Shown piece after piece: positions 3,716-44,703 of a stretch of DNA of 64,000 nt. How positions within the stretch are numbered: the stretch's first letter is position 1; each line of letters opens with the position of its first letter. This stretch comes from Diphasiastrum complanatum. Taxonomy: Eukaryota; Streptophyta; Lycopodiopsida; Lycopodiales; Lycopodiaceae. Under the pieces are notes generated by a model, which worked only from the letters and a program-made list of their open reading frames with translations, was not told where the DNA came from and did no database searches. The stretch covers positions 2,916,147-2,980,146 of the forward strand of contig CM055109.1 of the NCBI GenBank assembly GCA_029204225.1. The letters are read 5' to 3'. Made by a program: the position numbers and the translations under genes.

Positions 3716-3838
3716 GACAAAATTTCCAGAATTCACACGTATGGGGAATGTCCACAAGTATGATTGATCTTGATTAAGCTTTGTGATTAGCACAGTAACC
3801 TGATTCTAGATTGTTTAGCAAGATCTAGTTTAGAAGAA
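3716..3838 (-). repeat. Terminal fragment of a Co-c-type LTR
   Basis: About 120 bp that match, with scattered differences, the plus-strand left end of the Co-c LTRs at 17669 and 21770. Shared landmarks are TTCCAGAATTCA, TTGATTAAGCTTTGTGATT and CTGATTCTAGATTGTT. It stops abruptly where Gy-A gag-like sequence begins. It is probably what remains of a copia insertion at the 5' side of Gy-A, or of a recombination there. Confidence 0.7.
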
Positions 3839-3863
3839 ATCCTATCTCCAACCATCACACTTT

Positions 3864-5357: not shown

Positions 5358-5360
5358 TAG

Positions 5361-7730
5361 TTCGTAATGGCCATTGGTGCTACTTGGGAAAATGAGAAAA
5401 GTAATGTTACCCTACCTATTAAGCACAAGAACCTCCCTTCAGTAGCTGCTATTATTGACGATGGTTCAGGTGTAAACATCATGTCATCACACATATATCG
5501 AGAGTGGGGGCTGAGTGCCTTAAAGCCCGTAGGTTTTTCTATAAAACTTGCTGATCAGAGCTGTGTCAAACCCATGGGAATTGTTAAAAATGTACATGTG
5601 AAGGTCGTTGACCTTCGCTTTGTCATTAACTTCACAGTCTTAGATCTTCCAAAAACAACTTCATCTTACCGACTTTTGCTAGGAAGGCCCTGGCTAAAGT
5701 TAGCCAAAGTACGCCATGACTGGGGTACAGATCGTATCACATTGGAGAATCGGGATCGAGCCGTGAGAGTCGATCCGAATACCTGGACCATTAAGTCTGT
5801 GAGCCCGTTAGAAGAAATGACTTCGTCCACTACCGATCACACGATCGATCGAAATCTAAAGAAGCGCTACAAGCCATTGGGAATCCATCAAGACTCTGAT
5901 ACTGATATCATCAATTGGATTGATTCTCTAGCTACAGTCGATTGTATGAGCTCCGTAAAAGGATCCATCTCCCTACTCCGAGAAGCCAATCAAGAGTCAA
6001 AACCTTCAAACCAAAAGCTTGTCACCCTTGATGATGAGATTGAAATCGGGATAAACATGATCGAACTATCATGGCTTCCATTAGAACCACCCCTAGAACC
6101 CTATGAAGAAGAATTTCTTTCTTGGTGCTCAGTAATCACCTTGGAAGATGATGTGGGATATTCTGATGAACAAGCATTATCTTACTTTGATCCCCAATGT
6201 TATGGAGAAAGACGACTACCAGAAGACGTCCCTAAAATCCCATCCCTAGCTAAGGTCTCTAAAGAGCCTTTCCCCACAAGTGTATATCAATACCGGGTCA
6301 AGATAAGCCAATGGGACAATCCAGTAGATGAAGCCATAACCAATGTGGACACCACGTTGTGGGACCCCCTTGAGAAGACAGTTTTTCCCTCAAACCCTCT
6401 TATCTGCTCGTGCTCTATCAATACAGTGGCAGTGAAGAAACCAACTTCCAAAATACCTGCTAATTTAAAGGGAAAAGCTAAGATGGGTTGTGATCGTCCA
6501 CAACTCATGAATAACAAAATTAAACCAATAGACACTGCATCTAAGGTCTCAAAAAGAGTCTCGACAACATCCACTTTTCCATCCCAAAATCAAGAACTAA
6601 GACATGATTCAGAAACGACGGCTGAGCCTTTGCACGATGTACCAGCGTACTTTCGAGACTATACCTTAGATGATGTGATCGTTGCTATGCCCCAAGCCCA
6701 ACGGAAACCCGACTCGAATGACGCACCTGAAAATTCTTGTTCGTATGAGGGTCCTACAAAAGTCCAACCTCTAGGTCTAGCCGATCCTGGAGAAGGAGAG
6801 AAGATAGTCTATGTAGGTGAACAACTTACTACTGAAGAGCTATCCGATCTAAGAGACCTCCTACAAGAATACCGCGATTGTTTTGCATGGTCCTACAAGG
6901 ATCTGAAGGGAATACCATTTGAAGTAGTGCAGCACACCATTCCGTTAGTCGATGGTGCCGAATCGAAAGTGAGTCGACCTTATCGCTGCAACCCCCATTA
7001 CTCCGAACTGATTCAATAAGAGTTGGAAAAGTTACTAGAAGCTGGATTCATATATGAGATTGAGCATACTGACTGGGTATCCCCAATTGTGATTGTGCCT
7101 AAAAAGAATGGGAAACTACGCATTTGTGTAGACCTTAAAAAACTTAACACAGTCACAAAGAAGGACCACTTTCTCCTGCCCTTTACCGAAGGAGTGCTCG
7201 AATGAATAGCAGGAGAAGAGGCCTATAGTTTCCTCGATGGATTCAGTGGGTATAACCAAGTGCAAATAGCACCTGAAGACCAACATAAAACTGCCTTTGC
7301 AACTGCATGGGGGACTTATGCTTTTCACGTAATGCCATTTGGGTTGTGTAATGCACCAAGCACCTTCCAGAGGGTTATGCAACATGCCTTCAAGAAGTTT
7401 CTTCAGAAATTCTTAGAAGTATTCCTTGATGATTTGTGTGTACATTCAGCCCGTAGGTATCACTTAAATCGCCTGAAACAAGTTCTGCAACAATGTCGAA
7501 GATATGGCATTTCCCTTAACCTAGCCAAATGCCAAATATGGGTAACTCATGGCATTGTGCTAGGACATATCATATCGCAATACAGAATTGCCACTGATCC
7601 AGATAAGATAAAAGTAATAATTGAGATGACCCTGTCCAAAACAGTGCGTGATGTCTATACCTTTATGGGGCATGCCAACTACTATAGATGTTTCATATTA
7701 CTATTTGCATTATTGGCCTTGCCTCTCTGA
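5361..7730 (+). pseudogene. Gy-A protease and reverse transcriptase (gypsy pol, broken)
   Basis: Retropepsin-like domain near the start: the motif IIDDGSGVNIM occupies the place of the catalytic DSG/DTG loop, and LLGRPWLK matches the usual ILGRxW end of the domain. An acidic linker of about 350 residues follows. RT begins near 6830 (CFAWSYKDLKGIP) and continues through SPIVIVPKKNGKLRICVD, FLDGFSGYNQV (first catalytic Asp) and MPFGLCNAPSTFQRVM to FLDDLCVHS, which keeps the Asp pair in the YxDD position. Stops at 7017 (TAA) and 7203 (TGA) fall at conserved Gln and Arg positions and are each one C-to-T change from CAA and CGA. The frame is otherwise continuous. The protein ends after GHANYYRCF, so RNase H and integrase are missing. 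Dead as a polyprotein. Confidence 0.88.
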
Positions 7731-9030
7731 CCAAATTTTCACAAGAACCCTACAAGTTAACGCTAATAGAAACAACACAATCCGATCGTTCTTATGATAT
7801 TACTTGCAATCAGCAAATTCTTATGCATTCTAAAAACACCATTTTGTAACTTTACCCAATACAATTCCGTATCCCATGCACATATACTCTAGCATGGAAT
7901 AGTATGGATCAAAATAGAAAAGTTCACTAAAGTACCATCCTTCACAACAATGACATAACTTCTATTGATATTGAGTTGAAATTAGAGTACCTTAGTGACA
8001 AACAAGATAGTTGGGTTGTCGCAAGAACCGCTAGTCATGAATGTTTGGGAGATCAACTCGTGATCATGTTATTTCTCAGCTTCCTGGAGATGGAGTCAAA
8101 TAGAAGGATAGAGAACGATTACTCACTCTTCTATAGGGATTACTCACTGCTCATTTGCTGCCACATAAGTGGGACCTTTGCTGCAAAAATGCGATTGACT
8201 GTTTGCCACATATAATTGCCTCTGCAATCAATGACTTACAAGGAGCAGAAACGTGTGCGATTATTTGCCAACTGGAGGTGTGATTGAATGTTGTCTTTGA
8301 AATCAGCGGATGACTTGACCCAAAAGTGCAAATGAAAGTGTGATGTAGCCTCCTCAAAAGCAACGAGTAACTGACTTCACAAGGAACTTGGCTTGCAATG
8401 TTTCAAACTCAATTCTGTATTGCCTTTTACATTTATTGTTGGTATTGGGAGGTCGTCAGTCAACAGGGTAGCATTCTTCCAAACCTCTACTAAGGCAACA
8501 AGGCATGAATCCATAGGTGAAGTGGTTGTAGATGGAGTAAAATCATAGATGTAGGTCTAAAAAGAGTAGTTAGTGCAAACAGATTAGTGAGGAAGTCAGT
8601 CAAGAAGGGCTGACTAGGAGCCGCAGCTGTAGGTCCAACGCAGACAGTGGGTCCTGCAGAACCACATAGTAGGCCTGATACAGATCAACAAGAGGGAACA
8701 CAGTCCACAAGTAGGTGCTTTAGGCCACGTGGCACGTAGGCATTGGCCGCAGATAGATGGTAAATGAGTAGCAGAGTTTGAAAATCATAGGCAGGCTCCA
8801 ACGAGGGTCTGTAGAGCTGCTACAACCACAGCAAGGTCTGGTATGTCAGCAACATCACAAATGCGTGACATTTAGTTGCCATTCTGATCATCACGCTTCT
8901 GGCCTTGCTATCAACATAGGCCTGAATAGGTGTGGAAACACCTATACTGAGATTAAAAAATGGGGTTCACAATTCCAGCGTAGATTTGGTGGTCACCATA
9001 AGGTTAATCCTAGCACTTGCTTCACATTTT
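7731..9030. other. Unassigned sequence between Gy-A and Co-a
   Basis: About 1.3 kb with no recognisable domain. Open frames at 7976-8215 and 8778-9041 are short and unlike any family I know. The 8560-8800 part is richer in G+C than its surroundings. It could be decayed transposon DNA. Confidence 0.5.
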
Positions 9031-17081: not shown

Positions 17082-17668
17082 AAAATCCTAACAAACTCTA
17101 ATCTTGCTCGTCTTCTTCTTAGGTACTATAACTATTGGTGATACCCACTCACTGCTTAGAATAGGATATATAATACCCGCTCTAAGACATCTATCTAATT
17201 CGTCTTTTACTAATAAGGAGTACTTTGGATTCAATCTATATTGACGCTATCTAACAGGTATTGTTCCCTGAATGAGGTCTATTCTATGTTCACCCCATTT
17301 AACTGGTATTCCTATTAAATCATCCATCGACCAAGCAAACATGTTTTGGTATTTTTGAAGAAGCAATATATACTCTTCACGTTCTTGGTCCGATTGGTGT
17401 TTATATAGATTCAAAGTCTTACCTTTATTAATTTCTATTTCTACAAAATCTGTTTTATCTACCATCCCCTCGGTCAGACTTGCTCTGGTTCTACCCAGAA
17501 CTTCTCTTGACTTGGATGTTATCGGTATTTCTTCTTCCTCATCAATCTCATAACATTCTATGAAATTGATCCATGATTCAGCAGGTCTAGCTAACTGCTC
17601 ACCCCATCTCAAAAGGTGACCCCCCATTGGACTGGCTGTGAGAATGCCTGGAAAAAATATCTGTTTGG
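17082..17668 (-). pseudogene. Gy-B linker and reverse transcriptase N-terminus
   Basis: Minus-strand frame with an acidic linker (NFIECYEIDEEEEIPIT) and the gypsy pre-RT motif QKYQNMFAWSMDDLIGIP, then GEHRIDLIQGTIPVR, a stop near 17246, YRLNPKYSLLVKDELD, CLRAGIIYPILSSEWVSPI and VIVPKKKTSKIRVC. It stops in the middle of RT block 2 because the Gy-C LTR begins at 17081. The catalytic Asp residues are absent. The frame differs from protease 2 on the other side of Co-c, so a frameshift lies near the junction. Confidence 0.85.
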
Positions 17669-18518
17669 TGTTGAAAATTCCAGAATTCACATGTGTGGGA
17701 ATGTCCACAAGAGTGATCTTGATTAAGCTTTGTGATTGGCACAGTACCCTGATTCTAGATTGTTCAACAAGATCTAGTTTAGAGGATCTGGCTAATTCAC
17801 AATCTAGCATGCTAATCAATAGACTATGATAGCAATGAATCAAAGAATGATTAAAAGTACAAGATTACAATGCATAAGCATTAGCCTCAACACGAGTTAG
17901 AGAGAGAGAGAGCTAGAGAGATAACAAGAAAAACAGTTTAGATCCAACCAAGCATGAGATAGCTACAAAACTTTGGTTCTTCATTACTTTGTGAATGAGA
18001 ATGATATGTACATATATAGGAGAGCCAAAATTTGTGGTACTCCTTGCATTCAATGCACATCCTACACCTATTCAAGTACTTGACACCTAACTGCTAGCAT
18101 GCACAGGTTGCACCTAACTTCTACCTACTTTCTCCAAATGGCAATTTCTCAACTAGCCATGTACAAATCTACATGTATGTGTCCATTAGAGTGATTGCAT
18201 GCTTTGCATGTCACTATGGAAACTTAGGACATTATGCATTTATTGTGGCTCGAGTTTCTACAAGGTCATAATTGACCAATTCCATGTGAATCTCTATATG
18301 CATGTCAAACTAGACATTGTCAACATTATTGCATATCATACTAGACCAACTAGACTTTATGCATGTCACTGGAAATTGATCTACCTAACCCAAACTTGCC
18401 CTATTCTACAAGGATATGTTCTCAATTCACACACCTTGGATATGTACAAAATATTTACATGGGTAGGATCCCCCAAACAATAACAACAGATGATAGATAT
18501 GTTTTACAATTTTTAACA
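17669..18518 (-). repeat. Co-c 3' LTR
   Basis: 850 bp, plus-strand start TGTTGAAAATTCC and end AATTTTTAACA, an imperfect inverted terminal repeat. Nearly identical by eye to 21770-22635. The most obvious difference is a segment of about 15 bp (GCAAACAACTATTAA) present only in the other copy. CTCTCTCTAACTCGTG sits near 17896 in minus-strand reading. Confidence 0.88.
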
Positions 18519-18531
18519 CTCCTCCTTAAAA
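18519..18531 (-). other. Co-c polypurine tract
   Basis: Minus strand TTTTAAGGAGGAG immediately before the 3' LTR start TGTTAAAAATTG. It is the plus-strand DNA priming site of the element. Confidence 0.8.
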
Positions 18532-20059
18532 TATATCTATCTGATGTTGGTGAAGATCCTTTGAGTTTGGATTCTTTGCTTTGCATTTGAAGTGAAGATG
18601 AACAAAGAATCCATCATAGCAGTATGCTTGCCAAATCCATGATAAGTTCTCTTTGATAGAAATATTTTCCAAATGCCTTTGAAAAATATTTCACCAACCT
18701 GCTACTATGCCAATGTACCTCTTGCATGTCTGATGTCGATCCTGGGTATGCAAAGTCCACATGCATGAATTTGGCTGCAAGAAAGACTGAAAAAACCAAG
18801 GCTTCCATGCCTCATCATGACCACAAAGATCATACAGATCAAGATTGTACCATGAGCAATATTCAAGATTAAGCATACTAGCTTCATTAGTCCAAAAAAT
18901 ATGAACTCTATCCAAAATGGATCTAATCTTGAAACCATACTCAAACTTGATCAAATTAAGGCTAAATACTTTCTTGAGGTATAAGTGTCCTCAGTGGATG
19001 CTTCACTTAACCTCACAAGAAGTTTACAATATGCCTGAATACATGAAAAAGCTCATTTTTTCAAACTATGAGTACTAAACTCATACATGCTCTTACTCAA
19101 TTTAAGAGCATACAAATGATGATACAACATCTTGCTTTCTAGATGTTTTGGAAACATAATCAAGTCACAAAAGACAAGAAGTAATTCCAAACTAAAGACT
19201 TCATTCAAAAACAGAATTGTCTTACTTGATCTTTGAGATTTTTCAAATCTCAATTAAGCAAGATACATCATTAATCAAAGAAAAAGAATAATAGGTGAGT
19301 AAAACAAAATGAATACCACCTTTACTTTTCTTTTCTTTTTCATGAAATCAGATTAACAATGACTCGTCCTTGTACAATGATGAAGATCTCCTTGGACATG
19401 CATGTTGAGGATACTCCTCCTCAAACCTTGACCTCATCACAACTTGATTACTTGCCATAGTAATGACTTGTGATGCACTATGAGACACTGTGCTCTTGGC
19501 CACTTCCAAGATAGAAAATAGATCTTCAAAATCAAGAACTTCTCCATGCTCAAACACCTTCGAGATAGAGAGTGTAAAGGCTATGTAGCCTTCCTTGGTG
19601 GAGAAGCATCCAACCATGATCCATAGACTAGGATCACCATCCTTCTTTCTTTCCAAGAAACCACATACAAGGCAATAGTCTTCAAGAATACTAAGGTATA
19701 CAACCTTAGGCTTATAACTGAACAAGATTTCATAAAGTGCACTCCTTCCATTAGCTTCATAACTCCATAAAGTTTTGCATGATGGAACATACACATGCAC
19801 CAAAAAACTTGAAGAGACAAGACTTAGCCAATTGTAACTTGTGGATCCATCAATAGTTCATGCTAAGCAAGAAACACCTTCCTTGCTTACTGATAAAGAA
19901 AGATGAACATCGAAATGTTCCAACTCCATAGAATGTTCTGTCTTTTTAGAAGACATTAAATATGTATGCATAAGTGATTTTTCCATAGGATAAGCCACTC
20001 TTGGCTTGATCTCCTTGACTATAATAGGCATAGACCTGAAGTTGGAAACATACAACTTC
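18532..20059 (-). pseudogene. Co-c eroded pol (integrase remnants, no RT)
   Basis: Minus strand. A pre-integrase-like piece at about 20085-19870 contains EELWHRKLYVSNFRSM, MELEHFDVHLSLSVSKEG and little else of the integrase fold. At 19803-19348 an open frame resembles the integrase C-terminal linker (KPKVVYLSILEDY, DPSLWIMVGCFSTKEGYI). Between 19340 and 18532 only vague RNase H-like strings are seen, such as MHVDFAYPGS. The zinc-binding HHCC set, the DDE residues and the RT YVDD are all missing. The region is about half the length of a complete copia pol. Confidence 0.6.
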
Positions 20060-21001
20060 CTATGCCATAGCTCCTCCTTGGAAACATAAGTCATCAATGT
20101 GATGATCACATAAACTTGAATTTTCATGCACATCTAGCTTGAAAATACCTCCATATTTAGATCCACTTGCAAGGATCTTATTTTCTTTCTTTATGAAACA
20201 ACCATTGATATTGAAATCCAGTTCATAACCATCATCTAGCAACTTTCCTACACTAATCAAACTCTTTGTGAGATTAGGCACATAGAGAACATTGGAAAGT
20301 GTAAAATTCATAGAAGATGTAAGTTCTAAGGAACAACTTCCAACACCTTCAATTGCACATGCATCACCAACTGTTGTGTATATTGATTTCTTAGGATCTA
20401 GAACAGATTCAATAGAAACAAAAGAATCTTTGGAGCAACTCATATGAGTTGTTGCTCCACTATCAATATATCATGATACATCATTAAAATGTAAAGAAGA
20501 AAAACTAGACATCAGAAGAGATGCCTCTCCACAACTTGCATGTGAGTCTTCTATGATACAACTGGTTTGAACTTCTTGTGTCTTCTTCTTGAAGTTAGAA
20601 AGATGAGCTGACTCATCTTCTACTCCATCATAGTCTTTGTTCTTTGTTTTTTTCTTGGTGAAGGCACGAGAATACTGGTTCTTACTCCTCTTTCTTGACT
20701 TGATCTTGGCTTCATGAAGGTTCTTCAGAGTCTCCCAAGTCTCCTTTGCTGAGGTGCATGAACTAATCTCTCTCAACATCTCATCAGAGATGTTCAATTT
20801 GATGATATGTAGAGCAATTCTTGCTCTCTTCTTGAATCTCTGAACCTCATCAAAAGTTGCAGGTTCAACTTCAGTTCCAGTTACAATATCCATTACACCA
20901 TAGAGAATCAACAAGGATTCTATCCTATCCTTCCAAATTGAATAGTTAAAGGTGTATATTCTTTCACTAGCTTGAAAGAGACAATCTCCTATAGATGCCA
21001 T
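20060..21001 (-). pseudogene. Co-c gag and protease
   Basis: Gag starts at 21001 (MASIGDCLFQASERIYTFNY) and runs through KKRARIALHIIKLNISDEML and TSAKETWETLKNL, then jumps to a Lys-rich linker: the second half of gag and the CCHC knuckle are deleted. One TGA near 20470 replaces a conserved Trp. In the same frame the protease follows: YIDSGATTHMSC with the catalytic DSG intact, VLYVPNLTKSLISVGKLLDD, and an end at 20060. Apart from that stop, gag and protease are a single frame of about 310 codons, which is unusually well kept given the state of pol. Confidence 0.85.
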
Positions 21002-21769
21002 AAATGTGAAGACTCTTGTAATTGGATTGCAATATGTTTGAGCTTGTTCCTATCTGACTTAGAGTTGCTGCTCTCTTTCACTATAGGTATTTTCAAAAAA
21101 TGTACTACCTTCTTATGTAAAACACATGCAACTGTATTTGAGACAGATCTCAAATATTCCACAAGACAAGCTAACTAGATCAGATACACAAAGTGGATTG
21201 AGACACTTTGGTTAGTTTGAATCCTACTTTTGGCACATGTGAAATGCAACAAAAGAAAACACTATTGACACTCAGGAGGCTCAAAGGGTGCTCAATTACT
21301 TCAAACTCAGTCTTGATCTTTAGTTTCTTGTGTAGGATGCTCAAAACCATGAATTCAGAACAAAGCAAAAATTGATTCAAATCAAAATATTGTCACTCGG
21401 ATTTTGGGCCTATCGTAATCCTCTTTAAGAGCTTATAAATCTTGCTAGACACTTCAGATTGATTTGGTTTCAATTTCTATGGAAAGTACAGATCATAAAC
21501 TTTCCATCAAGCTGTAATACTGCTATCTTTGGATCTATCAACAAGGAAAACAAAGAGACTGAAAATCTCTGATTTTCACATGTGCGGAATTCCAGAATTC
21601 CGTACTACCTCAATTCAGGTCTGAAAATTCAGTTCAGGTCCGATTTGATCCAATTATACTTCAGAGAAATGTTAGAAAAGGTGAAAAACTGCTTTTTTGC
21701 TTGTTTATCTCTCAATTTCTTGTACTATCAGGGAAATTAGCATGCAAAGCTTAATGAGGCTCTGTTTGG
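21002..21769 (-). other. Co-c leader with degenerate primer-binding site
   Basis: Non-coding leader between the 5' LTR and gag. Next to the LTR the minus strand reads CCAAACAGAGCC: the last seven bases fit the initiator-Met primer site (TGGTATCAGAGCC) but the first part does not. A short inverted repeat, CGGAATTC/GAATTCCG, lies at 21585-21602, next to TTTTCACATGTG at 21573-21584. Confidence 0.6.
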
Positions 21770-22635
21770 TGTTGAAAATTCCAGAATTCAACGTGTGGAA
21801 ATGTCCACAAGAGTGACTGATCTTGATTAAGCTTTGTGATTGGCACAGTACCCTGATTCTAGATTGTTCAACAAGATTTAGTTCTAAAGATATGGCTAAT
21901 TCACAATCTAGCATGCTAATCAATAGACTATGATAGCAATGCATCAAAGAATGATTAAAAGTACAAGATTACAATGCATAAGCATTAGCCTCAACACGAG
22001 TTAGAGAGAGAGAGCTAGAGAGATAACAAGAAAAAACAGTTTAAATCCAACCAAGCATGAGATAGCTACAAAAGTTTGGTTCTTCATTACTTTGTGAATG
22101 AGAATGATATGTATATATATAGAAGAGCCAAAATTTGTGGTACTCCTTGCATTCAATGCACATCCTACACCTATTCAAGTGCAAACAACTATTAACTTGA
22201 CACCTAACTGCTAGCATGCACAGGTTGCACCTAACTTCTACCTACTTTCTCCAAATGGCAATTTCTCAACTAGCCATGTACAGATCTACATGCATGTGTC
22301 CATTAGAGTGATTGCATGCTTTGCATGTCCCTATGGAAACTTAGGACATTATGCATTTATTGTGGCTCGAGTTTCTACAAGGTCATAATTGACCAATTCC
22401 ATGTGAATCTCTATATGCATGTCAAACTAGACATTGTCAACATTATTGAATATCATACTAGACCAACTAGACTTTATGCATGTCACTGGAATTTGATCTA
22501 CCTAACCCAAACTCGTCCTATTCTACAAGGATATGTGTTCAATTCACATACCTTGGATATGTACAAAATATTTACATGGGTAGGATCCCCCAAACATTAA
22601 CAATAGATGATAGATATGTTATACAATTTTTAACA
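21770..22635 (-). repeat. Co-c 5' LTR
   Basis: 866 bp, the same termini as 17669-18518. The segment near 22185-22199 absent from the other LTR accounts for most of the length difference. High similarity of the pair implies a fairly recent insertion relative to Gy-B. Confidence 0.88.
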
Positions 22636-23053
22636 TTGGGTAGACCAATTTATAATAGCATCTGCTTGATATAACCATGTTCTTCCAAATAATATCAAAT
22701 TAGGTGGTGTATCTATTGGATTCATGACAAGAAAATTCATAACAAATGTCTTTGTCTCTATAATTACGTTAATACCTCTTAGCTCACCCACTGGTATACA
22801 TTTAGTCACGTCCGCTAAATGGATTTCATGATAAGTGATAGGCTGTATCTCTAGTCCTAATTCTTTAACCATTGTTTTCATTACTGGATTGATACTGGAT
22901 CCTGAGTCTATTAGTATTCTATCTATAGTTTGATCTCCTATGGTTGCACTAATCTTTGGAACTCGACAATCTCCTCTATCTACATATTCTACTCTATTAC
23001 TGTATGTAGGTATACTTAGTGTGACTAACCTCTCCCCTTCCTCAGTCCCTACT
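22636..23053 (-). pseudogene. Gy-B second retropepsin domain
   Basis: Minus strand from about 23050: GERLVTLSIPTYSNRVEYVD, then the active-site loop LIDSGSSIN (catalytic Asp codon at 22906-22908), KELGLEIQPITYHEIHLADV, PVGELRGINVIIE, MNFLVMNPIDTPP and the closing FGRTWLYQADAIINW. All retropepsin landmarks are present, with a canonical DSG. It is homologous to the domain at 23055-23740 immediately upstream, sharing the LAD(A/V)T, GEL and GR(P/T)WLYQAD(V/A)I signatures. A 1-nt frame change separates the two. Co-c is inserted at its last residues (INWSTQ). A recombinational duplication is one explanation; a built-in two-domain protease is the other. Confidence 0.85.
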
Positions 23054-23740
23054 GACTGAAGCCCTTATAGCTCGAGGAAGATGTAGGTGTCTCGCCTTCG
23101 TACTTATCTTTTTCCCATGATATGGAAATTCTTTTATGACTTTTTCCTGTCGATGTCTCCATCTGGTCTCTGAAGGTAATCTCCTTTTTCTTCCAGTGGG
23201 TTATAACATCGGCCTGATAGAGCCATGGTCGTCCTAATAACACTTTATATGACGATTGTCTCGTAGTTTTTAATATTATAAAATCCATAAGAAACTTATG
23301 GTCTCCAATATAAATTGTGACCTGAGATAGTTCTCCTATTGGTGATCTTCTAGTTGCATCGGCTAACCTTAAATGTCTTAAAGTGGGAGCTATTTTATGA
23401 TGAATGCCTAATTCATATGCCGTTTCTTCAGTCATTATATTTACACTAGATCCGAAATCTATGGGTACATTATCTAAGATGCAGCCATTAATTACTATCT
23501 GAATCTCTAGTTGGCCTTCATCACCGTAATTAACTAATCCTAAGTTGATTACTGGTAACTTTGCTTTTCTTCTCTTTTTATTTTGCAAGAATTGCTTAAT
23601 TTCTTTCTTATAATATTGGTTATCGTCTAATAACTGTTTAAAGGTTATATTAGGCATTCTAGAAACAAGGTCTCCTACAATATTATAAGAACGGTTTCTA
23701 AGTGGTGACAGATCTCTAGGTATCTCGCTACTTATAACTG
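23054..23740 (-). pseudogene. Gy-B first retropepsin domain
   Basis: Minus strand. After gag comes a basic linker (KKEIKQFLQNKKRRKAKLP), then QLEIQIVINGCILDNVPID, the active-site loop IDFGSSVNIM (Asp codon at 23457-23459), HLRLADATRRSPIGELSQV, FLMDFIILKTTRQSSYKVLL and GRPWLYQADVITHW. The Ser of DSG is Phe here (TTC, one transition from TCC). The catalytic Asp is kept, but DFG is not a normal retropepsin triad. The frame is open from 23771 to a stop at 23049-23051. A frameshift near 23740 separates it from gag and another near 23055 separates it from the second protease. Tail sequence (KDKYEGETPTSSSSYKG) links the two domains. Confidence 0.85.
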
Positions 23741-24092
23741 TTCTTAGGCAAACCACCCAAGAACCATTCATTTTGCATAGGAACTGGATACTGGGCTCCT
23801 AGCTTTCCTATTAAATTCTTAACCCTACGAGTATATTTCCTAAGTGATTCCTTTGGCTTTTTCTCAACGAAGTTAAGCCGAGCTAACAATCTAGTGGAAT
23901 ATCCTATCTCCCTAAACTGTTTAAGGAATGCTGCTTTTAAAGCGTTCCAAGTATTAATTGTTTCCGGTACTAATTGACTGTACCAAATCCTAGCCTGCTT
24001 CCGCAGAAGACCTGACAAAATTCTAATTTTATCCTCATCTGTTGTAAAAGTACTATACTTTAGGACCATAAATGGATCTACAAAAGATCCAC
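23728..24092 (-). pseudogene. Gy-B gag, second half
   Basis: Minus strand, the classical retrotransposon gag domain: PFMVLKYSTFTTDEDKIRIL, GLLRKQARIWYSQLV, TWNALKAAFLKQF, KKPKESLRKYTRRVKNLI and ending NEWFLGGLP. It continues the gag piece at 27682-27215 across the Co-d insertion (EHTD / PFMV). No zinc knuckle is seen before the protease linker, which is missing or was never present. Confidence 0.85.
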
Positions 24093-24722
24093 AAGAGTGA
24101 TTGGATGCTTGCTTAACAATCTATCAAAAAACTAGACACAAAAAAGTTGATCTAGATTGGCAATTTGACAAACAACAAGCATTGACAATCAAAAGCATTG
24201 ATAAACATTGAAATCCGAGCCCACACGTGTGTACTACAGGCTTTAGTACGGACTTCAACCTGAGAAACAAGTAGAAATTGATTTGGTTTCATTTGGATCA
24301 CAAAAACTCAATGTACATAGTGAACTAGCTTGAGATTGCCAATGAGCTCCAAAAATTTTCTATCTTCTCACTATGGACAGAGGGAATACATAGCAAATTC
24401 GACTTCCTTCTTGAAGTTAGGTGGATTTCCAGCATGTAATAAGGAAGTTAACTCACTCTCCTTGACCTAAAATGAAAACCTAGTCTATTTCCTAGAGTTA
24501 TGCTTGGTAGATAGTTAGTTGGTCAAATTTTCACCTTAAACTTAGGTGTAGGTCCTATAAAGTAGGGATGACCACCAAATAGACATGACCAACTCTCTTG
24601 ACTTGACCTAACCTACATTAGGATGGCCTCACATTTGTGGGACCCACTTGTGTACACAATTTACACTATTCTACATGGTTTTTGATCAAGCTAGATTTGC
24701 CAATTTTTGGCAATTCTTCACA
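24083..24722 (-). repeat. Co-d 3' LTR
   Basis: Right end TTCTTCACA at 24722, left end about 24083. It contains CACACGTGTG at 24222-24231 and GTACGGAC at 24246-24253. Compared with the 26830-27214 copy it lacks about 19 bp after TTAGGATGG, a small deletion between ATGG repeats. It directly follows the polypurine tract in element orientation. Confidence 0.78.
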
Positions 24723-24734
24723 CTCCTCCTCAAA
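24723..24734 (-). other. Co-d polypurine tract
   Basis: Minus strand TTTGAGGAGGAG immediately preceding LTR start TGTGAAGAATTG. Confidence 0.8.
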
Positions 24735-24932
24735 TTTAGCTTGATCTATTTACAACTCTCTTCATAGATCAATGAAAGCTTTTAGAAGTGTCTAAAAAAT
24801 CCAGCTACAAAGAAGGAACTTTTGAGACTCCAATAGAGAATGATGTCCATGAAGGATCTTTCACCACCTCTTAAAGGATCCCTTACAAGATGTTCCATAA
24901 ATGTGTCTATATACATGTAGCACACTTCAAAA
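24735..24932 (-). pseudogene. Co-d remnant of RT/RNase H junction
   Basis: About 30 residues on the minus strand (FMEHLVRDPLRGGERSFMDI) match the copia RT end motif seen in Co-h as ESHVKLTIRGNERSFEDI. Everything between the gag-protease frame and this scrap, including YVDD, is deleted. Confidence 0.65.
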
Positions 24933-26906
24933 CTAAACATCATGCCAAGCCATGGATTCCAAGGCATTTTGTGCACTTGAAGATACATCAATCAAAATAT
25001 TAAGTGCATAAATAATGTTGCCAAAGACAACTTGTCTTGCTTGATCCATATGATTGAGCCTAGATGGCTCCATCTTGATACTCAAGGTTCTTCTTGGAGT
25101 CCTCGTGTCTTGAGCTTGCTCCTCCACTTGATTTGACTCCAAACCATCAATGAATTGAATAAGGTGTTGATCCAAAGGTGCTTCTTCAATTTTACAAATC
25201 TTCCACTCTTGAAAGATCACATTTCCACCATTGACAAATTCTTTGGCTGAAAACAAGTAGATTCTACAATCTCTACTTGAAGAGCAAAACACTACCATTA
25301 TTCCTATCATTGAAATAGGATAATCTTTGGTCCTTACATTGGAATGATCATGCTCAAAGCATGTGGACCCAAATATTTTCAATACAAATGATGTTTCATC
25401 TTTTATGACACTATTCAAACTATTACAAAAATAGTTATCCAATGAAATTGCTTTATCAACAACAAATGTAGATTTCAAAGCATCCCATTTCATTGTCTTG
25501 TCATACAAAGTAATAAACACCATGAATCTTAAAGGTAAGAAACAAGTCACCTCATGTCTACTAATACTTTCCAAAAAGTATTCAAAGATAGTAGACTCTC
25601 CAATGCTCACCACCCTTGCAAGATGCACACTTGAATGGACAATTTGCATGCAATTTGATGACTCGGACATTGTCATTGAGGACTGAACTCTCATGCTTTG
25701 AGGCTGATCCTCAAGATCTTCCTCCTTTTGATGCTCCTCCTCAATGCAAGCAAGATTACACTTTGCCAAGATCTCCTCTTGAGTGATCTCCTCCTTTGCC
25801 AAGCTCATTCTTTCAAAAGCAACACTAGCTTCCAACTTAAACAATCTTCCATGTTTAAATCCCTTTGCAATGCAAACATCATTCTTCAAGATGAAGCAAA
25901 CACCATGCTTAAAGTGGACATCCAAACCACTTTCTAAGAGTAGACCAACACTAAGCATATTCTTGGTGATTGATGGTACATAAAGGACATTTTCTAGATC
26001 CATGCATTTTGAGGATTCTAGATACAAAGAGATGGTGCCAACACCATCTATCCTACACTCTTCATCATTTGTAGTAAAGACAAACTTTTTAGCATCATTG
26101 AAAGAGTGTAAGGTTGAGAAAAAGTCCTTTTCACAAGACATGTGGGAGCTAGCCCCACTGTCGATCCACCAATTGTCTCTTGAATTGCTATTGCTTGTTG
26201 GTGAGGATGTAGATGCCATCAAGAATACATCTACTTCATCCTCCTCCTCCTCCTTTGCAAGGTTTCCTTGTTTGTCCTCCTCCACTTGTGCTCTTAGCCT
26301 CTTGTAGCATTCAGATGCATAATGCCCCTTCCTTCCACAAAAGAAGCATTTATGCTTTGACTTGTCCTTTGAGCTTGATGCATCATCCTCTTCTTTGGCC
26401 TCCTTTGGATGCTTCTTCTTTCCATTGGTCTTCTTCTTGCCCTTGAATGAGAAATTGGCTTTCTCATCACCATCCTGCAACGACAAGGAACTCATCCTAG
26501 ATTTTGCATGGAGCATCCTACACTCTTCAGCCACTAATACACTGTGAAGTTTTTCTATAGTTGGCAAAGTGTCTTGGATGGCAAAACTTTGGACCAAATT
26601 TGCAAAGTCATCTCCTACACCATTAAGGACAATTTGTACAAGCTCTTCATCATGAATCTTCTCTCCAATGGAAGCCAACTCCCTATTTAGAGACTTGATT
26701 CTGAGTACATAATTCTGTGCACTCTCTTCACTTCTCCTCATGCTTTGCAAAATTTGATTTCTAAGCATAAGAACTCTAGAAGTGTTGCTAGACTCATAGA
26801 TTGATTTTAAAGACTCCCAAGCCAAATTTTCTATCTTCTCACTATGGAGAGAGGGAATACATAGCAAATTCGACTTCCTTCTTGAAGTTAGGTGGATTTC
26901 CAGCAT
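24933..26906 (-). CDS. Co-d gag-protease with eroded integrase-like tail, one open frame
   Basis: 657 codons without a stop. The first ~27 codons are antisense-free LTR sequence, fused to gag at about ENLAWESLKSIYESS. Gag continues through SRVLMLRNQILQSMRR and a CX2CX4HX4C zinc knuckle (residues 187-200, CFFCGRKGHYASEC) to a protease with WWIDSGASSHMS (Asp249). From about residue 385 on, the tail can still be matched to integrase in order (IVHSSVHLARVVSIGES; KIFGSTCFEH; IGIMVVFCSSSRDCRIYLFS; NVIFQE) but the HHCC and DDE residues are gone. It ends with a linker like that before RT (RRTLSIKMEPSRLNHMDQ). Gag and protease may still be functional; the tail cannot be an integrase. A start codon near the LTR junction is uncertain. 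Confidence 0.75.
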   Translation of the reverse strand: MLEIHLTSRRKSNLLCIPSLHSEKIENLAWESLKSIYESSNTSRVLMLRNQILQSMRRSEESAQNYVLRIKSLNRELASIGEKIHDEELVQIVLNGVGDDFANLVQSFAIQDTLPTIEKLHSVLVAEECRMLHAKSRMSSLSLQDGDEKANFSFKGKKKTNGKKKHPKEAKEEDDASSSKDKSKHKCFFCGRKGHYASECYKRLRAQVEEDKQGNLAKEEEEDEVDVFLMASTSSPTSNSNSRDNWWIDSGASSHMSCEKDFFSTLHSFNDAKKFVFTTNDEECRIDGVGTISLYLESSKCMDLENVLYVPSITKNMLSVGLLLESGLDVHFKHGVCFILKNDVCIAKGFKHGRLFKLEASVAFERMSLAKEEITQEEILAKCNLACIEEEHQKEEDLEDQPQSMRVQSSMTMSESSNCMQIVHSSVHLARVVSIGESTIFEYFLESISRHEVTCFLPLRFMVFITLYDKTMKWDALKSTFVVDKAISLDNYFCNSLNSVIKDETSFVLKIFGSTCFEHDHSNVRTKDYPISMIGIMVVFCSSSRDCRIYLFSAKEFVNGGNVIFQEWKICKIEEAPLDQHLIQFIDGLESNQVEEQAQDTRTPRRTLSIKMEPSRLNHMDQARQVVFGNIIYALNILIDVSSSAQNALESMAWHDV

Positions 26907-27214
26907 GTAATAAGGAAGTTAACTCACTCTCCTTGACCTAAAATGAAACCCTAGTCTATTTCCTAGAGTTATGCTTGGTAGATAGTTAGTTGGTCAAATT
27001 TTCACCTTAAACTTAAATGTAGGTCCTATAAAGTAGGGATGACCACCAAATAGACATGACCAACTCTCTTGACTTGACCTAACCTACATTAGGATGGGTT
27101 TCCCATGTGGCATCATGGCCTCACATTTGTGGGACCCACTTGTGTACACAATTTACACTATTCTACATGGTTTTTGATCAAGCTAGATGTGCCAATTTTT
27201 GGCAATTCTTCACA
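26830..27214 (-). repeat. Co-d 5' LTR, truncated and fused to gag
   Basis: Matches the right-hand part of the 24083-24722 LTR. At about 26832-26842 it switches from LTR to gag inside GAAAATTT, a short string present in both parents (the LTR continues GAAAATTTTTGGAGC at 24350). A microhomology deletion removed the LTR end, primer site, leader and gag start. Confidence 0.82.
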
Positions 27215-34830: not shown

Positions 34831-35332
34831 TACTTTTATTTCTGAATGCATATATACATGTACTAAAACTTTTGATATCGAGTGACCTTTTGCTTTCCAG
34901 TAAGATTTGTATGTCATTTTTGCCCTTTTCTTCTGTCGAAAATTGCCCTTTGATGATGGATGCAACAACACCCACGAATTTTTCATGTATTTTGTTGGCT
35001 TCTAGTTATCAGCTTCATCTTTCTCATTGTAAAGAATCATAGACTCAACAGTAGATATTGGTCTCCTTGCCATTGCTATTTTGAAAGCTTGGACACCAAA
35101 AATTTCTCTGATACAATACTTAATTTCAATTTTTCAATCCACATTTAGTCTAATGTGAATGCCACCGTAGTCACAATTACTACACATACTATATTTTAAG
35201 TAATTGTGCATACTATATTTCTATAACTGTAACTAGTATGGTTAGCAAATTTCATTATACTAGCCAAAATAGTTAAGTAGATTTCACATGAGGTATTGAC
35301 GTCGGGCAGGCAGGAAGAGCACACCAATGGGA
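34831..35332. other. Unassigned DNA left of Co-h
   Basis: About 500 bp without recognisable features. It ends in TGGGA, the left target duplication of Co-h. Confidence 0.5.
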
Positions 35333-35985
35333 TGTGAAAAACTCAGATCCAAAAGATGCTAAAGTTTCATAAAGATCTTGGCCATGGAAGTTATGCACAT
35401 CTAGATTGAAAAAATGATAGAAATTGTGATGTTAAGCATACTAAACATCAACTAAACATCAAAATCTGATCATAAGCTTCCACAAACAGAAACTTGCTGT
35501 CCCTGTCCGTACTTCAGAGCCTACAACCTGCATTTCACACGTGTGAAGCCATAGCAACAAAGAAATCACAATTCTAGTGGCTAGAATGCAAGATATGAAC
35601 AAAAAAGTGAGAGAGAAGAAGATGGATCTTCAAAGAGCATAACATTCATTCAATAGAATGAAAATGAGATGTGTACATACTCGTGGAGATGGCTATTTAT
35701 AGCAGCCATAGTGCCTCTTGGCCACTTGTCTTATGATAGGCTAAAATTGGGGTCCAATAGGATTCACCCATCTACCTAGAAATTTGGTCAAATAGGAATG
35801 CACCAAATTATGAGCCAATAGAAGAGCTCCACACTCGACCTCCTCTAATTAATGTGACCTCAAAAGTAGTGTACACATACTTTGGGCCTCTACATACATG
35901 TATGAACCTATCTCTAACTTTTATTTGGCCATAGGCCTACAAAATCTCAAGTTAGGAAAATACTACTAGTTGACAATTTTTCACA
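35333..35985 (-). repeat. Co-h 3' LTR
   Basis: 653 bp, TGTGAAAAACTC to AATTTTTCACA on the plus strand. It contains the minus-strand TATA box CTATAAATAG (35693-35702), the 14-bp palindrome TTCACACGTGTGAA (35534-35547) and GTCCGTAC (35505-35512). Confidence 0.95.
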
Positions 35986-36652
35986 CTCCCTCTTCAACTA
36001 GTTTTAGCATAGATTTAGAAAGTACACCAAGACTTGTTCTATGCTTGAAAAATAAGTCCTTTCCCAATGCTTTGGTAAAGATATCAGCCACACATTCCTT
36101 TGATGGGACATGTTCAAGCTTGATCTCTTTTGCCAACACTTGTTCTCTCACAAAATGGTAAGCCACCTCGATATGTTTGCTCCTTGCATGGAAAACCGGA
36201 TTGCTTGCTAGACTTTGGGCTGAAAGGTTGTCACAAAAGATGATTGGACTCTCTGAAAAATCCAGCAAATGAAGCTCCATAATCATCCTCTTGATCCACA
36301 CCATCTCCTTTGTGCATGATGTCAAAGCTTTGTACTCGGCCTCACTAGAAGAAAGTGATATAGTTGCTTGTTTCTTCGACATCCATGAGATAGCTCCATC
36401 ACCTATGAAAATAGCATGTGCATTTATGGATTTTCTATCCATAAGGTCTCCTGCAAAATCTGAATCTGAAAAACCAAATAAGTTAGGTGATGAGCCTCTA
36501 TAAACAATGCCAAAATCTTTTGTTCCCGAGATGTATCTCAAGATCCTCTTTCCTAGTTTCCAATGTTCTATGCTAGGATCTTGCATGAATTGGCTTAATC
36601 TACCAACACAATAAGATAAATCAGGTCTTGTGATGGTTAGATATATAAGAAC
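35981..36652 (-). CDS. Co-h RNase H part of pol, separated by a 2-nt deletion
   Basis: Minus strand. It begins, after the frameshift, with RPDLSYCVGRLSQF-like sequence and continues MQDPSIEHWKLGKRILRYI, FSDSDFAGDLMDRKS, ISWMSKKQATISLSSSEAEY, IFCDNLSAQSLASNPVFHAR, KHIEVAYHFVREQ and DIFTKALGKDLFF to SKSMLKLVEEGV. The acidic residues of the RNase H active site (SDSDF, SEAEY, CDN) are intact. There are no stops. The only defect is that it is out of frame with the upstream 1102-codon frame because two bases are missing in GGTTCTTATATATC near 36648. It would need a 2-nt correction, or a frameshift, to be expressed. Confidence 0.88.
   Translation of the reverse strand, partial: VLIYLTITRPDLSYCVGRLSQFMQDPSIEHWKLGKRILRYISGTKDFGIVYRGSSPNLFGFSDSDFAGDLMDRKSINAHAIFIGDGAISWMSKKQATISLSSSEAEYKALTSCTKEMVWIKRMIMELHLLDFSESPIIFCDNLSAQSLASNPVFHARSKHIEVAYHFVREQVLAKEIKLEHVPSKECVADIFTKALGKDLFFKHRTSLGVLSKSMLKLVEEGV
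35986..35998 (-). other. Co-h polypurine tract
   Basis: Minus strand GTTGAAGAGGGAG next to LTR start TGTGA. It is also read as the last codons of RNase H (VEEGV), whose stop TGA lies inside the LTR. Confidence 0.85.
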
Positions 36653-39600
36653 CTATTAGCTTCCTATAGAGAGTAATGTCCTCGAAGGATCTTTCATTAC
36701 CTCTTATAGTTAGCTTTACATGTGATTCCATAGGTGTATCAATAGGATTTGCATCTACCATATGAAATCTATTGAGAATAGAAATAGCATACTTCTCTTG
36801 TGAAATAAAAGTGATTTGAGAAGTTCTAATTACTTCTATTCCTAAGATATAGCTCAAAAGACCAAGATCATGCACTTCAAATTCCTTTTTTAGTGCTTTC
36901 TTGATACCTTCTATATCTTCCTTGTTCCCTCCACTTAAAATAATGTCATCCACATAAATTAGAAGGATTGTAACATCATTAGCACTAATTCTAAAGTAAA
37001 GTGAATGATCATACTCACTCATAGTGAAGTTTTGAGAAAGTAGAAAAGAGTTAAGCCTAGCATACCAACTCCTTGGTGCTTGCTTAAGACCATACAAACT
37101 TTTTTGTAGAAAACACACATGATTAGGCTTGCTATGAGAAACATAGCTCTCGGGTTGCTCCATGTAGACTTCCTCTTCAAGATCACCATTCAAGAAAGCA
37201 TTAGAAATGTCTAATTGCCAAAGATCCCATCCATAAAGAGTTGCAAGGGAAATGATTACTCTTATGCTCACCATCTTTGCCACGGGTGCAAAGGTTTCCT
37301 CATAGTCAATGCCATGCTCTTGAGCATAACCTTTAGCCACCAACCTTGCCTTCAACTTGTTGATAGATCCATCTTGATTTGTCTTTACCTTGAAGATCCA
37401 TTTGCATCCAATTGCACTTTTGCCCTTTGGAAGCTCCACCAATCTCCATGTGTTGTTCTTCATAAGTGCTTCAAACTCAAGATCCATTGCTTGGATCCAT
37501 TCCTCTTTTTGCCTTGCTTCATCTACACATGAAGGTACATCAAAAGAAGTTAGGAAAGCATAGTTGGATCCATCCACCACTTGCTTACCTTTGCCATCAT
37601 AAGTGAGCCTTGAGGGTTTCACTTTATGCCTTGGAGTTCTCCTTGGAATTTGACTTGAAGAGGCTTCTTCAACATCCACATCCAATGTGTCATCAACTCC
37701 ATTGTCATCAAGCACATTAGTTGCAACAACACCATCATCACTTGAAACAACTTTTGGAATGTTACTTTCATCAAAAATGACATCCCTACTTGTGAACACT
37801 TTCTTGATTGAAGGAACATAAATCCTATATGCTTTGCTTACTTCACTATAACCAACAAAAATGCCCTTTCTTGAAGATGGATCCTCCTTAGTTCTATCAT
37901 CAAGAGTAATGTTGAAGTAGCAAATGCATCCAAAAGTTCTTAGAAACTTGACATTAGGCTTCATACCAAACAAAGCTTCAAAAGGGGTTTTTCCTTCCAA
38001 TACAACACTTGGCCATCTATTGCATAGGAAATTTGCACACAACAAAGCATCACTCCAAAAAGGTTTAGGAAGATTAGCATTCAATCTCATTGCCTTTGCA
38101 CTCTCACACAAGGTTCTATTCTTCCTCTCGGCCACTCCATTTTGTTGTGGTGTTCTTGGACATGTGTACTCCCTCTTGATCCCATGCTCATTGCAAAAGG
38201 CTTTGAATTTGTTAGAAATGTATTCACCACCATTGTCGCTCCTCAAGCATTTGATTTTGGTTGTAAATTGAGTCTCAATAGCAACTTTGAACTTGACAAA
38301 CACATCAAACACCTCATCCTTGCTCTTTAGTAGATAAACCCAACAAAATCTACTAAAATCATCAATGAAAGTTACATACATCTTAGCACCTCCATTGCTA
38401 ATTGTAGTAACACCATGAATATCCGAATGCAAGAGAGAAAAAGGCATCTTAGATCTAGATATAGATCTAGTATATGGCAATCTATGTGATTTAGACAAAG
38501 CACATTCTTCACAAACATGATTCAAGCAAGTAAGAGACTTGGGAAGTCCCCTTACTACCTCCTTTTTGGCTATTACCTCCAAGGCCTTGTAGTTGAGATG
38601 TCCCATCCTTTTATGCCATACCTCTTGAATTGACATTTGTTCATTTGCCATGCATCCAACTTGGTTAGCAACAACACATGCATCAAGCTTGAACAATTTC
38701 CCTTGCCTTTTCCCTTTTGCAATGATACTACACCCCTTTTTGATCAAGCAAGCATCACCATCAAACTCAACTTTGAATCCTTTGTCAAGCATTTGGCTTA
38801 CACTAAGTAAGTTCTTGGTAATGGATGGAATGAGCAAAACATCTTTCAATTCTATATTCCTATTTGTAGAAAGTGAAATAGGAATTGTGCCAATCCCCTT
38901 GATTGCACACTCACCATCATTTGCGGTATAGATTACCTTCCTATCACCATCAAATGCCATTAAAGATGAAAAATACTCTTTATGATATGTCATATGAGAA
39001 GTGGCTCCACTATCAATCCACCAAGGATCAATGTCTCCATGATTAGCCAACAAGCAAGATGACATAACAAAAGCATCATTTGAAAGAAGCTCATCCCCAC
39101 CCTCATCAATAGTTAGATTGGTTTGCTTTTCCCCTTGATCCCTCTTTTTCTTAAAACAATCACTAGCAAAATGCCCTTTGACTCCACAATAGAAACATTT
39201 TAGCTTAGATCTATCCTTCTTTTTGCCAAAAGTAGAGTGCTCACCTTGGTCTTGCCCTTTAGACCAATTGCTTTTACCTTTGCCCTTGAACTTGCCTTTA
39301 GAGAACATTGCCTCCTCTTCTCCTCCTTGAGATGTAGAAGATGCTCCCACTCTTGCTTGCAACCTGAATTCTTCAGCCAACAAGACCTCTTGCAAGTCTC
39401 CAACACTTGGTAAACATTTTTGGATAGCATAACTTTGAACAAGATTAGCATGATCATCCAACAAGCCATTGAGAATCACTTGAACAAGCTCCTCATTATT
39501 TATGCCATCATTAATGCATGCTAACTCATCATTCAATGCTTTAACTCTCAAAACAAAAGCATGTCCACTCTCACTCTTCTTTTGCATACAAGAAAAGATT

Positions 39601-39929: not shown

Positions 39930-40526
39930 GTTGCAATGATTGATCTCTGATCTTTGACCTGTTCCAATGCACTAAGCACTCTCTTGAATCAACAAATGAA
40001 ACACAAGAAGAAATCACAAAGATTTGGAACCTAAAACCTTACTTTTTCTCTCTTTTCCTCACTTTTTCCTCAATTTTAGCCACTAGTTTTATGATTTCTT
40101 GATCAAACCAAGACCAAACCTCAATATACTTGCTTTTCCCTCACTCCTAAGATTGAAATACACTCTTGAATCATTCAGCAAACTGAAAATCAGAGGGTTA
40201 CATCAATTTTGAAGTTTTTGACATGAAGAAGCAAGAAATTGAATCAAAAAACTATATGCTAGAATGGAAAACTAATAGGATCTTGTTGGATCTTGCATCT
40301 CCCTCTTTCCAAAACAATTTTTGTCTCCTTATTCTGATAAGTACAGAGGGAATTCGCCCTACTTCAATTGAAATGCATACAAATGATGTTTTGATCACAA
40401 AGATCCAATTTCTACACATAAATCAACAAGATTTTTAGCTAGAAACTTGATTGGAATGCTACAAAAGCAAACTCGCCCACAAATCTCTTCTAAATCTGGC
40501 AAAACCTGCACATTTGGCCGCCTAAT
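39930..40526 (-). other. Co-h leader
   Basis: About 600 bp non-coding region between primer site and gag ATG. No stable feature recognised. A small open frame on the other strand (40223-40438) looks accidental. Confidence 0.7.
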
Positions 40527-40538
40527 GCTCTGATACCA
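40527..40538 (-). other. Co-h primer-binding site
   Basis: Minus strand TGGTATCAGAGC, perfect initiator-Met tRNA site, directly against the 5' LTR. Confidence 0.95.
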
Positions 40539-44520: not shown

Positions 44521-44630
<110 letters not shown>

Positions 44631-44703
44631 TTCACCTTCTCTCAAAACTATGGTATGCTCTTGAAACTGTTACCCATATATTAGAATGGCTGATCAGTTC
44701 TCT

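What the first reader, a model, noticed from the sequence alone, without database searches (positions are those of the whole stretch)
22636..23740. Two consecutive retropepsin domains in gypsy element Gy-B
Seen: minus strand, first domain with loop IDFGSSVN (Asp at 23457-23459) closing GRPWLYQADVITHW; second with LIDSGSSIN (Asp at 22906-22908) closing GRTWLYQADAIINW. They are about 184 codons apart and clearly paralogous. Known: LTR-retrotransposon proteases are normally single domains that act as homodimers, each giving one Asp. Inference: a covalently linked two-domain protease, one half altered (DFG), would parallel the two-lobed pepsin design. The alternative is a recombination-made duplication in one dead copy.
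Basis: partly seen in the sequence, partly recalled or inferred. Interest (0 to 1): 0.72.

Follow-up and report, generated by a model that had tools for sequence, protein, structure and literature searches.

The report
Retrotransposon family with twin proteases
A numerous family of plant jumping genes carries two related but long-diverged protease domains side by side in one protein where such elements normally carry one, which could be a natural stage between the paired retrovirus-type protease and the two-lobed pepsin type.

Summary
The window holds one broken Ty3/gypsy copy (Gy-B) with two retropepsin domains in a row (35% identical, E 4e-21), here in different frames; a copia element cuts PR2 near its end. 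In the window's own genome the pair is a family trait, not an accident of a dead copy. All 29 other loci read from the PR2 search have PR1 similarity upstream (in four only partial). 26 of 30 loci read from the PR1 search have the PR2 active loop downstream; the other four are deleted or truncated. Asp-Asp spacing is 188 codons, in one frame, in about half of measurable loci, and some copies have both domains in one open frame. In 50 distinct copies PR1 keeps Asp in 47 of 47 readable, PR2 in 45 of 47. Both domains are under purifying selection; the linker is not detectably so. The 'altered' DFG loop is polymorphic in PR1 (29 Ser, 17 Phe, 1 Tyr). PR1 and PR2 lie nearer each other than to the PRs of two other families here. 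They probably pair within one chain, but that is inference. A caulimovirid with two proteases is in print; my searches found no Ty3/gypsy case.

The parts
23184..23534 (-). PR1, first retropepsin domain (inside open frame 23798-23049); catalytic Asp codon 23459-23457, loop IDFGSSVN
   Evidence: weak Pfam matches PF08284, PF13975, PF13650 below their cut-offs
22984..23183 (-). linker between PR1 and PR2; the frame changes here in this copy
   Evidence: linker not detectably constrained across copies
22636..22983 (-). PR2, second retropepsin domain (open frame 23064-22630); catalytic Asp codon 22908-22906, loop LIDSGSSIN; cut near its C-terminal end by the copia insert
   Evidence: Pfam matches PF13650 and PF13975 below their cut-offs
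23728..24120 (-). Gy-B gag (capsid) piece upstream of PR1
   Evidence: PF03732 E 1.9e-12, over its cut-off
17088..17661 (-). continuation of Gy-B beyond the copia insert: end of PR2, pre-RT stretch and start of RT, then broken off
   Evidence: read by eye; no Pfam match for these pieces; contiguous with PR2 in six of six uninterrupted relatives compared
17660..22635 (-). copia element inserted in PR2 (two LTRs 94.65% identical); not part of Gy-B
5451..5753 (+). retropepsin of a different Ty3/gypsy element (Gy-A), loop IIDDGSGVN, no second PR found in window 3001-8000; used for comparison

Best explanation
Gy-B is a large Ty3/gypsy family whose pol reads PR1 - linker - PR2 - RT - RNase H - integrase, with two full retropepsin domains in one polyprotein. 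Shown: the tandem pair recurs with a modal fixed spacing, both catalytic Asp are kept, both domains are under purifying selection, and copies exist with both in one open frame. Inferred: the pair arose by an old tandem duplication in the Gy-B lineage (or capture from a near relative). Also inferred: each lobe gives one Asp to a single active site formed within the chain, a natural single-chain pseudo-dimer, which would let the protease act without waiting for two polyproteins to meet. My estimates: family-level functional tandem protease 0.93; origin by duplication rather than capture 0.6; in-chain PR1-PR2 pairing as the main active form 0.45.
For: PR2 as query: 150 scored matches (of 13450 first-look candidates) in the own genome, 78-100% identical; PR1 similarity lies upstream in 29 of 29 other loci read, its active loop alignable in 25 of 29 (L018, L022, L024 and L032 keep part of PR1 only). 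PR1 as query: 26 of 30 loci read, the window copy and its twin included, have the PR2 loop downstream; of the other four, L049 has an internal deletion through the rest of pol (L050 gives the same values and looks like its twin), L068 is broken off in the linker, L065 keeps part of PR2. Asp-Asp distance exactly 564 nt in 15 of 30 and 14 of 26 measurable loci (the two lists share some places). One open frame without stop covers both domains in L042 (657 codons) and L027 (508 codons), both with Asp-x-Gly loops in each domain, and in L041 (831 codons, RT included). In 50 distinct copies PR1 Asp 47 of 47, PR2 Asp 45 of 47, both 42 of 44 readable. Omega where the domain was not the search query: PR1 0.577 (2dlnL 15.8), PR2 0.589 (2dlnL 9.0); linker 0.787 (2dlnL 3.3, not significant). 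Both domains keep the G-R motif and a following hydrophobic stretch. Stem-to-stem tree distance PR1-PR2 about 1.4, against 2.3-2.7 to two other families.
Against: No structure or biochemistry: both models are poor (mean pLDDT 42 and 49). Nothing tested here separates in-chain pairing from PR1-PR1 and PR2-PR2 homodimers. L041, the longest frame read, has Arg for Gly in its PR2 loop, as do 6 of 47 copies. Pfam reports its best protease stretch in L041 in PR1 and names none in PR2. The loci read are the best-scoring ones and some are twins of each other. All copies come from one genome; no second species could be searched. The tree is unrooted, its long branches meet, and the PR2 group has only 90/70 support. 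Omega of 0.4-0.6 is modest; decay of inserted copies is mixed in.
Confidence: 0.5

Rival explanations
1. Two proteases with divided labour: PR1 and PR2 each form an ordinary homodimer, with different cut sites or timing (one for gag, one for pol, say).
For: Both domains look complete and similarly constrained; they have diverged to 35% identity; the residue after Asp behaves differently (PR1 Ser, Phe or Tyr, PR2 Ser in 45 of 47).
Against: The modal fixed spacing and one-chain arrangement favour, but do not prove, pairing in the chain.
Confidence: 0.33
2. One domain (PR1, or its Phe form) no longer cuts and serves as a folding, dimerising or regulatory partner of the other.
For: The residue after the PR1 Asp is Phe in 17 and Tyr in 1 of 47 copies; its C-to-T fraction, 0.36, is the highest of 10 CCG sites (mean 0.105), though 12 of 474 cytosine or guanine sites of the region in all contexts also reach 0.30.
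Against: PR1 Asp is kept in 47 of 47; omega of PR1 is about the same for Phe copies (0.418) and Ser copies (0.449) (both lowered by loci found with PR1); Phe and Ser are mixed on the tree (11 changes, shuffled mean 13.8, 22 of 300 shuffles as low), so recurrent mutation is not excluded. The window's Gy-A element, in which I found one PR, has Asp at this residue.
Confidence: 0.17
3. A recombination-made duplication in one dead copy, or a chimera of two families seen only here.
For: In this copy the frame changes in the linker and the copy is broken.
Against: The pair recurs through the family with both Asp kept. PR1 and PR2 are too diverged for a recent copying: third codon positions differ at 62% of aligned codons.
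Confidence: 0.02
4. Origin: the second domain was captured from another, related family by recombination, rather than made by tandem duplication.
For: PR1 and PR2 are deeply diverged (tree distance about 1.4), and families with a closer PR may exist that I did not sample.
Against: Of the PR groups compared, PR1 and PR2 are nearest to each other, and they share the closing WLYQAD motif that the Gy-A protease lacks.
Confidence: 0.4

Closest known systems
Ty3/gypsy (Metaviridae) retropepsin, single domain (order GAG-PROT-RT-RH-INT in Neumann et al. 2019, PMC6317226, passages seen)
   Same: Retrotransposon gag, PR before RT, then RNase H, then integrase; Asp loop and G-R motif in each domain.
   Different: Two PR domains in tandem, not one. 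That survey says elements encoding multiple copies of one domain type were in every case removed as likely mispredicted, so such a family would not appear in it.
Wendovirus, a proposed caulimovirid genus (Tomas and Vicient 2022, PMC9794742, one passage seen; also PMC10377300, passages seen)
   Same: A plant reverse-transcribing element with two aspartic protease domains.
   Different: There the two lie in different ORFs, match different Pfam families (PF13975, PF00077), and the authors discard duplication. Gy-B has them in one frame, as paralogues, in a Ty3/gypsy element with integrase.
Pepsin family A1 (two-lobed; PMC2761423 start of abstract in a search listing; PMC2642776 passages)
   Same: Two retropepsin-like lobes in one chain, held to come from duplication and fusion. 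The Asp-Asp spacing here, 188 codons, is near that of pepsin (about 183, recalled).
   Different: No match to the pepsin family in Pfam; sequence and context are those of an LTR retrotransposon; pairing of the lobes not shown.
Engineered tethered-dimer retroviral proteases (recalled, no call)
   Same: Two retropepsin units in one chain.
   Different: Made in the laboratory from two copies of one unit with a short linker; here natural, diverged and with a linker of some 65-70 residues.

Membership tests
Retropepsin (clan AA, family A2-like) | Asp-x-Gly active loop, x usually Thr or Ser (rule recalled) | tested here: met
   Asp 47 of 47 in PR1 and 45 of 47 in PR2; Gly 43 of 47 and 39 of 47; x Ser 29 of 47 in PR1, Ser or Thr 46 of 47 in PR2
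Retropepsin (clan AA, family A2-like) | hydrophobic-Gly-Arg motif near the C-terminus | tested here: met
   G 0.94 and R 0.82 in PR1 (49 and 44 rows), G 0.96 and R 0.98 in PR2 (45 rows)
Retropepsin (clan AA, family A2-like) | sequence relation to known retropepsins | tested here: met
   profile of PR1, PR2 and the Gy-A PR matches Ddi1 structures at 3.7e-4, PR1 alone matched none; Pfam PF13650 at 2e-6, over its cut-off, with its best stretch in PR1 of L041; window PR1 and PR2 match only below the cut-offs
Retropepsin (clan AA, family A2-like) | acts as a homodimer of single domains | not testable with these tools
   no binding or activity data; models too poor
Ty3/gypsy retrotransposon | order GAG-PR-RT-RH-INT | tested here: met
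   gag over cut-off in the window and just below it in L040; RNase H then integrase over cut-off in L040; PR1, PR2, RT in one frame in L041 with a below-cut-off integrase match after it
Ty3/gypsy retrotransposon | paired LTRs, PBS, TSD | tested here: inconclusive
Ty3/gypsy retrotransposon | one protease domain | tested here: not met
   two in the family; one found in the window's Gy-A element (5 kb searched) and in 2.4 kb of another family
Pepsin family A1 | match to pepsin-family sequence profile | tested here: not met
   no such Pfam match
Pepsin family A1 | two lobes in one chain share one active site | not testable with these tools
   both domains in one open frame in L027, L041 and L042; shared site not shown
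Wendovirus / Caulimoviridae | no integrase; movement protein (recalled, and PMC10377300 passage) | tested here: not met
   integrase core PF00665 over cut-off in L040; no movement protein among the ten ORFs scanned

The most novel reading that the evidence does not exclude
Gy-B encodes a natural single-chain two-lobed retropepsin: an LTR retrotransposon protease that duplicated, diverged and became an intramolecular pseudo-dimer, independently retracing the step long supposed to have made pepsin, and it spread widely, perhaps to thousands of copies, in one plant genome.
Probability: 0.38. Interest if true: 0.82.

Novelty: new variant of a known kind. Interest (0 to 1): 0.62.

Why it matters
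Pepsin is held to have come from duplication of a dimeric retropepsin-like ancestor (PMC2642776 passage), but the two lobes of pepsin resemble each other in sequence only round the active Asp and one short motif (PMC2761423, start of abstract). A family in which two retropepsin domains of 35% identity sit in one selected chain makes that step testable: one can ask whether the lobes pair, whether each Asp is needed, and how asymmetry sets in (PR1 varies at the residue after Asp, PR2 hardly does). It also bears on control of retrotransposon processing, which is usually held in check by the need to dimerise (established knowledge). And it warns that a standard survey filter, removing elements with repeated domains, would discard such families.

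Tried and rejected
Programmed frameshift between PR1 and PR2: the overlap holds no canonical slippery heptamer by my reading, and many relatives have both domains in one frame, so the shift is decay of this copy. DFG as simple decay: doubtful as sole cause, since Phe is at 17 of 47 while the matching PR2 site has the same kind of change in 1 of 47; but clustering on the tree is weak (22 of 300 shuffles as low), so I do not claim a clean subfamily. Copia insert without target duplication: my first reading; comparison with six uninterrupted relatives shows one contiguous site and, by my reading, fits a 5-base duplication with one mismatch.

Relatives in other collections: IMG/VR and prokaryote contigs gave none; one search gave one stretch (L001) with a 29-residue RT match and no protease match of weight. 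Omega for PR2 in loci found by PR2, and PR1 in loci found by PR1, is 0.39 each and biased down by the search; I rely on the crossed values. The first PR comparison had only three sequences; adding seven loci still leaves the tree unrooted.

Counts: 63 loci (L010-L073 less L044, the window copy again) were reduced to 50 distinct copies by dropping exact and near-identical rows; 47 entered the copy tree; 8 of 50 had both domains without a stop by the script's rule and were used in the PR tree. Of the 300 scored matches, the best 60 were cut as loci; one search added four stretches, two of them places already among the 60. Intact copies are therefore over-represented.

Full report
What is in the window. 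On the minus strand, 23798-22636 encodes two retropepsin domains. PR1 (loop IDFGSSVN, Asp 23459-23457) and PR2 (loop LIDSGSSIN, Asp 22908-22906) align over 118 residues at 35% identity, E 4e-21. They are old paralogues, not a copying slip: at aligned codons they differ at 46, 34 and 62% of first, second and third positions. Upstream lies a Ty3/gypsy capsid piece (PF03732, E 1.9e-12). The copy is broken: the domains lie in different frames, and a copia element (LTRs 17660-18518 and 21761-22635, 94.65% identical) sits near the end of PR2. In six of six uninterrupted relatives compared, the two flanks of that insert adjoin, so the RT start at 17246-17088 belongs to the same element.

A family trait. 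A search with PR2 of the genome that holds the window (1.74 Gb, 5176 contigs) gave 150 scored matches out of 13450 first-look candidates, at 78-100% identity; with PR1, 150 out of 15222. These first-look counts are loose and are not copy numbers. In 29 of 29 non-window loci read from the PR2 search, PR1 similarity lies upstream; the active loop is alignable in 25, while L018, L022, L024 and L032 keep only part of PR1. In the reverse test 26 of 30 PR1 loci, the window copy and its twin among them, have the PR2 loop downstream. Of the four exceptions, L049 lost the rest of pol by an internal deletion (L050 gives the same values and looks like its twin on another contig), L068 is broken off in the linker, and L065 keeps part of PR2. 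I saw no intact single-PR branch, but only the best-scoring 60 of 300 scored matches were cut as loci, and some are twins. The Asp-Asp distance is exactly 564 nt in 15 of 30 and 14 of 26 measurable loci (the lists share some places); the window copy has 551.

One chain. Open frames without stop cover both domains in L042 (657 codons) and L027 (508 codons), each with an Asp-x-Gly loop in both domains. L041 reads PR1 (Asp at 138), PR2 (Asp at 326) and RT (600-759) in one 831-codon frame, but its PR2 loop has Arg for Gly, and Pfam reports its best protease stretch in PR1 and names none in PR2. L040, another copy, shows RNase H, then integrase, then further ORFs without Pfam match. So the order is gag - PR1 - PR2 - RT - RH - INT, a Ty3/gypsy plan with a doubled protease.

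Selection. After removing duplicates 50 distinct copies remained. PR1 Asp is kept in 47 of 47 readable, PR2 Asp in 45 of 47, both in 42 of 44. To avoid bias by the query I used each domain in the loci found by the other: omega is 0.577 for PR1 (23 rows, 2dlnL against omega 1 = 15.8) and 0.589 for PR2 (15 rows, 9.0). The linker gives 0.787, not different from 1 (45 rows, 3.3). RT on a coarse grid gives about 0.6. So both domains were selected while the family spread, and the linker between them was not detectably so, which is a useful internal control, though the linker is half as long and has less power. These are codon-model estimates on mixed live and decaying branches.

The DFG loop. PR1 has Ser 29, Phe 17 and Tyr 1 of 47 at the residue after Asp; PR2 has Ser 45, Leu 1, Thr 1 of 47. 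In a 430-codon stretch, 14 residue columns have a second residue at 25% or more, most of them mild exchanges. The C-to-T fraction at the PR1 site is 0.36, the highest of 10 CCG sites (mean 0.105); over all contexts 12 other sites of 474 reach 0.30. That suggests, without proving, that the Phe form was carried by replicating copies; PR1 of Phe copies is about as constrained as that of Ser copies (0.418 and 0.449, both lowered by loci found with PR1). Against this, the two forms are mixed on the tree: 11 changes, shuffled mean 13.8, 22 of 300 shuffles as low; a two-clade comparison gave p 0.03 but was chosen after seeing the tree. Recurrent mutation may contribute. In seven PRs of other families here the loop is DGG, DDG or DRG, so Ser or Thr is not a strict rule in this genome.

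Origin. In a tree of 8 PR1, 8 PR2 and 8 PRs of two other families (grouped by me by identity), each group is one side of a branch (PR2 support only 90/70); stem to stem, PR1 and PR2 lie about 1.4 apart and 2.3-2.7 from the others. The tool warns of long branches meeting and the tree has no root, so a tandem duplication in the Gy-B lineage is favoured, not shown. In the window's Gy-A element (5 kb searched) and in 2.4 kb of one element of the other family I found one PR; the other six comparison loci are too short to tell.

How it most likely works. Retropepsins need two lobes, each giving one Asp (established knowledge). Two complete lobes in one chain, joined by some 65-70 weakly constrained residues, should find each other more readily than partners in another polyprotein. 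I therefore hold in-chain pairing as the likeliest main form (0.45), followed by two separate homodimers with divided work (0.33) and one helper domain (0.17). Nothing here tests pairing: the models of each domain were poor.

What is in print. Within the held library (open-licence PubMed Central; searches) I found no Ty3/gypsy element with two proteases. The nearest is Wendovirus, a caulimovirid with two different aspartic protease domains in different ORFs, where duplication was discarded (PMC9794742, passage; also PMC10377300, passage). The main survey of plant LTR elements removed in every case elements with multiple copies of one domain type as likely mispredicted (PMC6317226, passage), so absence from it is not evidence against such families. 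Most subscription journals and preprints are not in that library.

Noticed in passing
window 5361-5780 and about 21118-25067; G000:C18:19648957 and 19659238: The proteases of both gypsy elements of the window have 99% identical twins on the same contig about 16.7 Mb away; the twin of Gy-B (L045) shares the copia insert and lacks about 540 bases round its edge. The Gy-A twin lies on the other strand. Looks like a segmental duplication with rearrangement.
   Followed up: partly
window 35332-41191: A copia element with 100% identical 654-base end repeats and a 1116-codon open frame, 36621-39971: a very recent insertion.
   Followed up: no
window 24353-27214: A copia copy (end repeats 93% identical) whose 5' end repeat runs straight into the gag reading frame (open frame 26918-24933), so the usual leader seems to be missing.
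   Followed up: no
window 42160-52009: Large near-tandem repeats of about 3.2 kb, roughly 88-99% identical, with CT-rich runs.
   Followed up: no
L040 6733-7869, L041 6856-7719: Gy-B copies carry further open frames after integrase without any Pfam match; possibly the extra 3' ORF known from other plant gypsy elements (recalled).
   Followed up: no
PR2 active loop across copies: PR2 has Arg in place of the loop Gly in 6 of 47 copies, with 4 changes on the tree; probably decay, but frequent.
   Followed up: partly
window 5451-5753, L075-L080: Seven PRs of other gypsy families of this genome have DGG, DDG or DRG active loops, not DTG or DSG; the loop of L074 was not read.
   Followed up: partly
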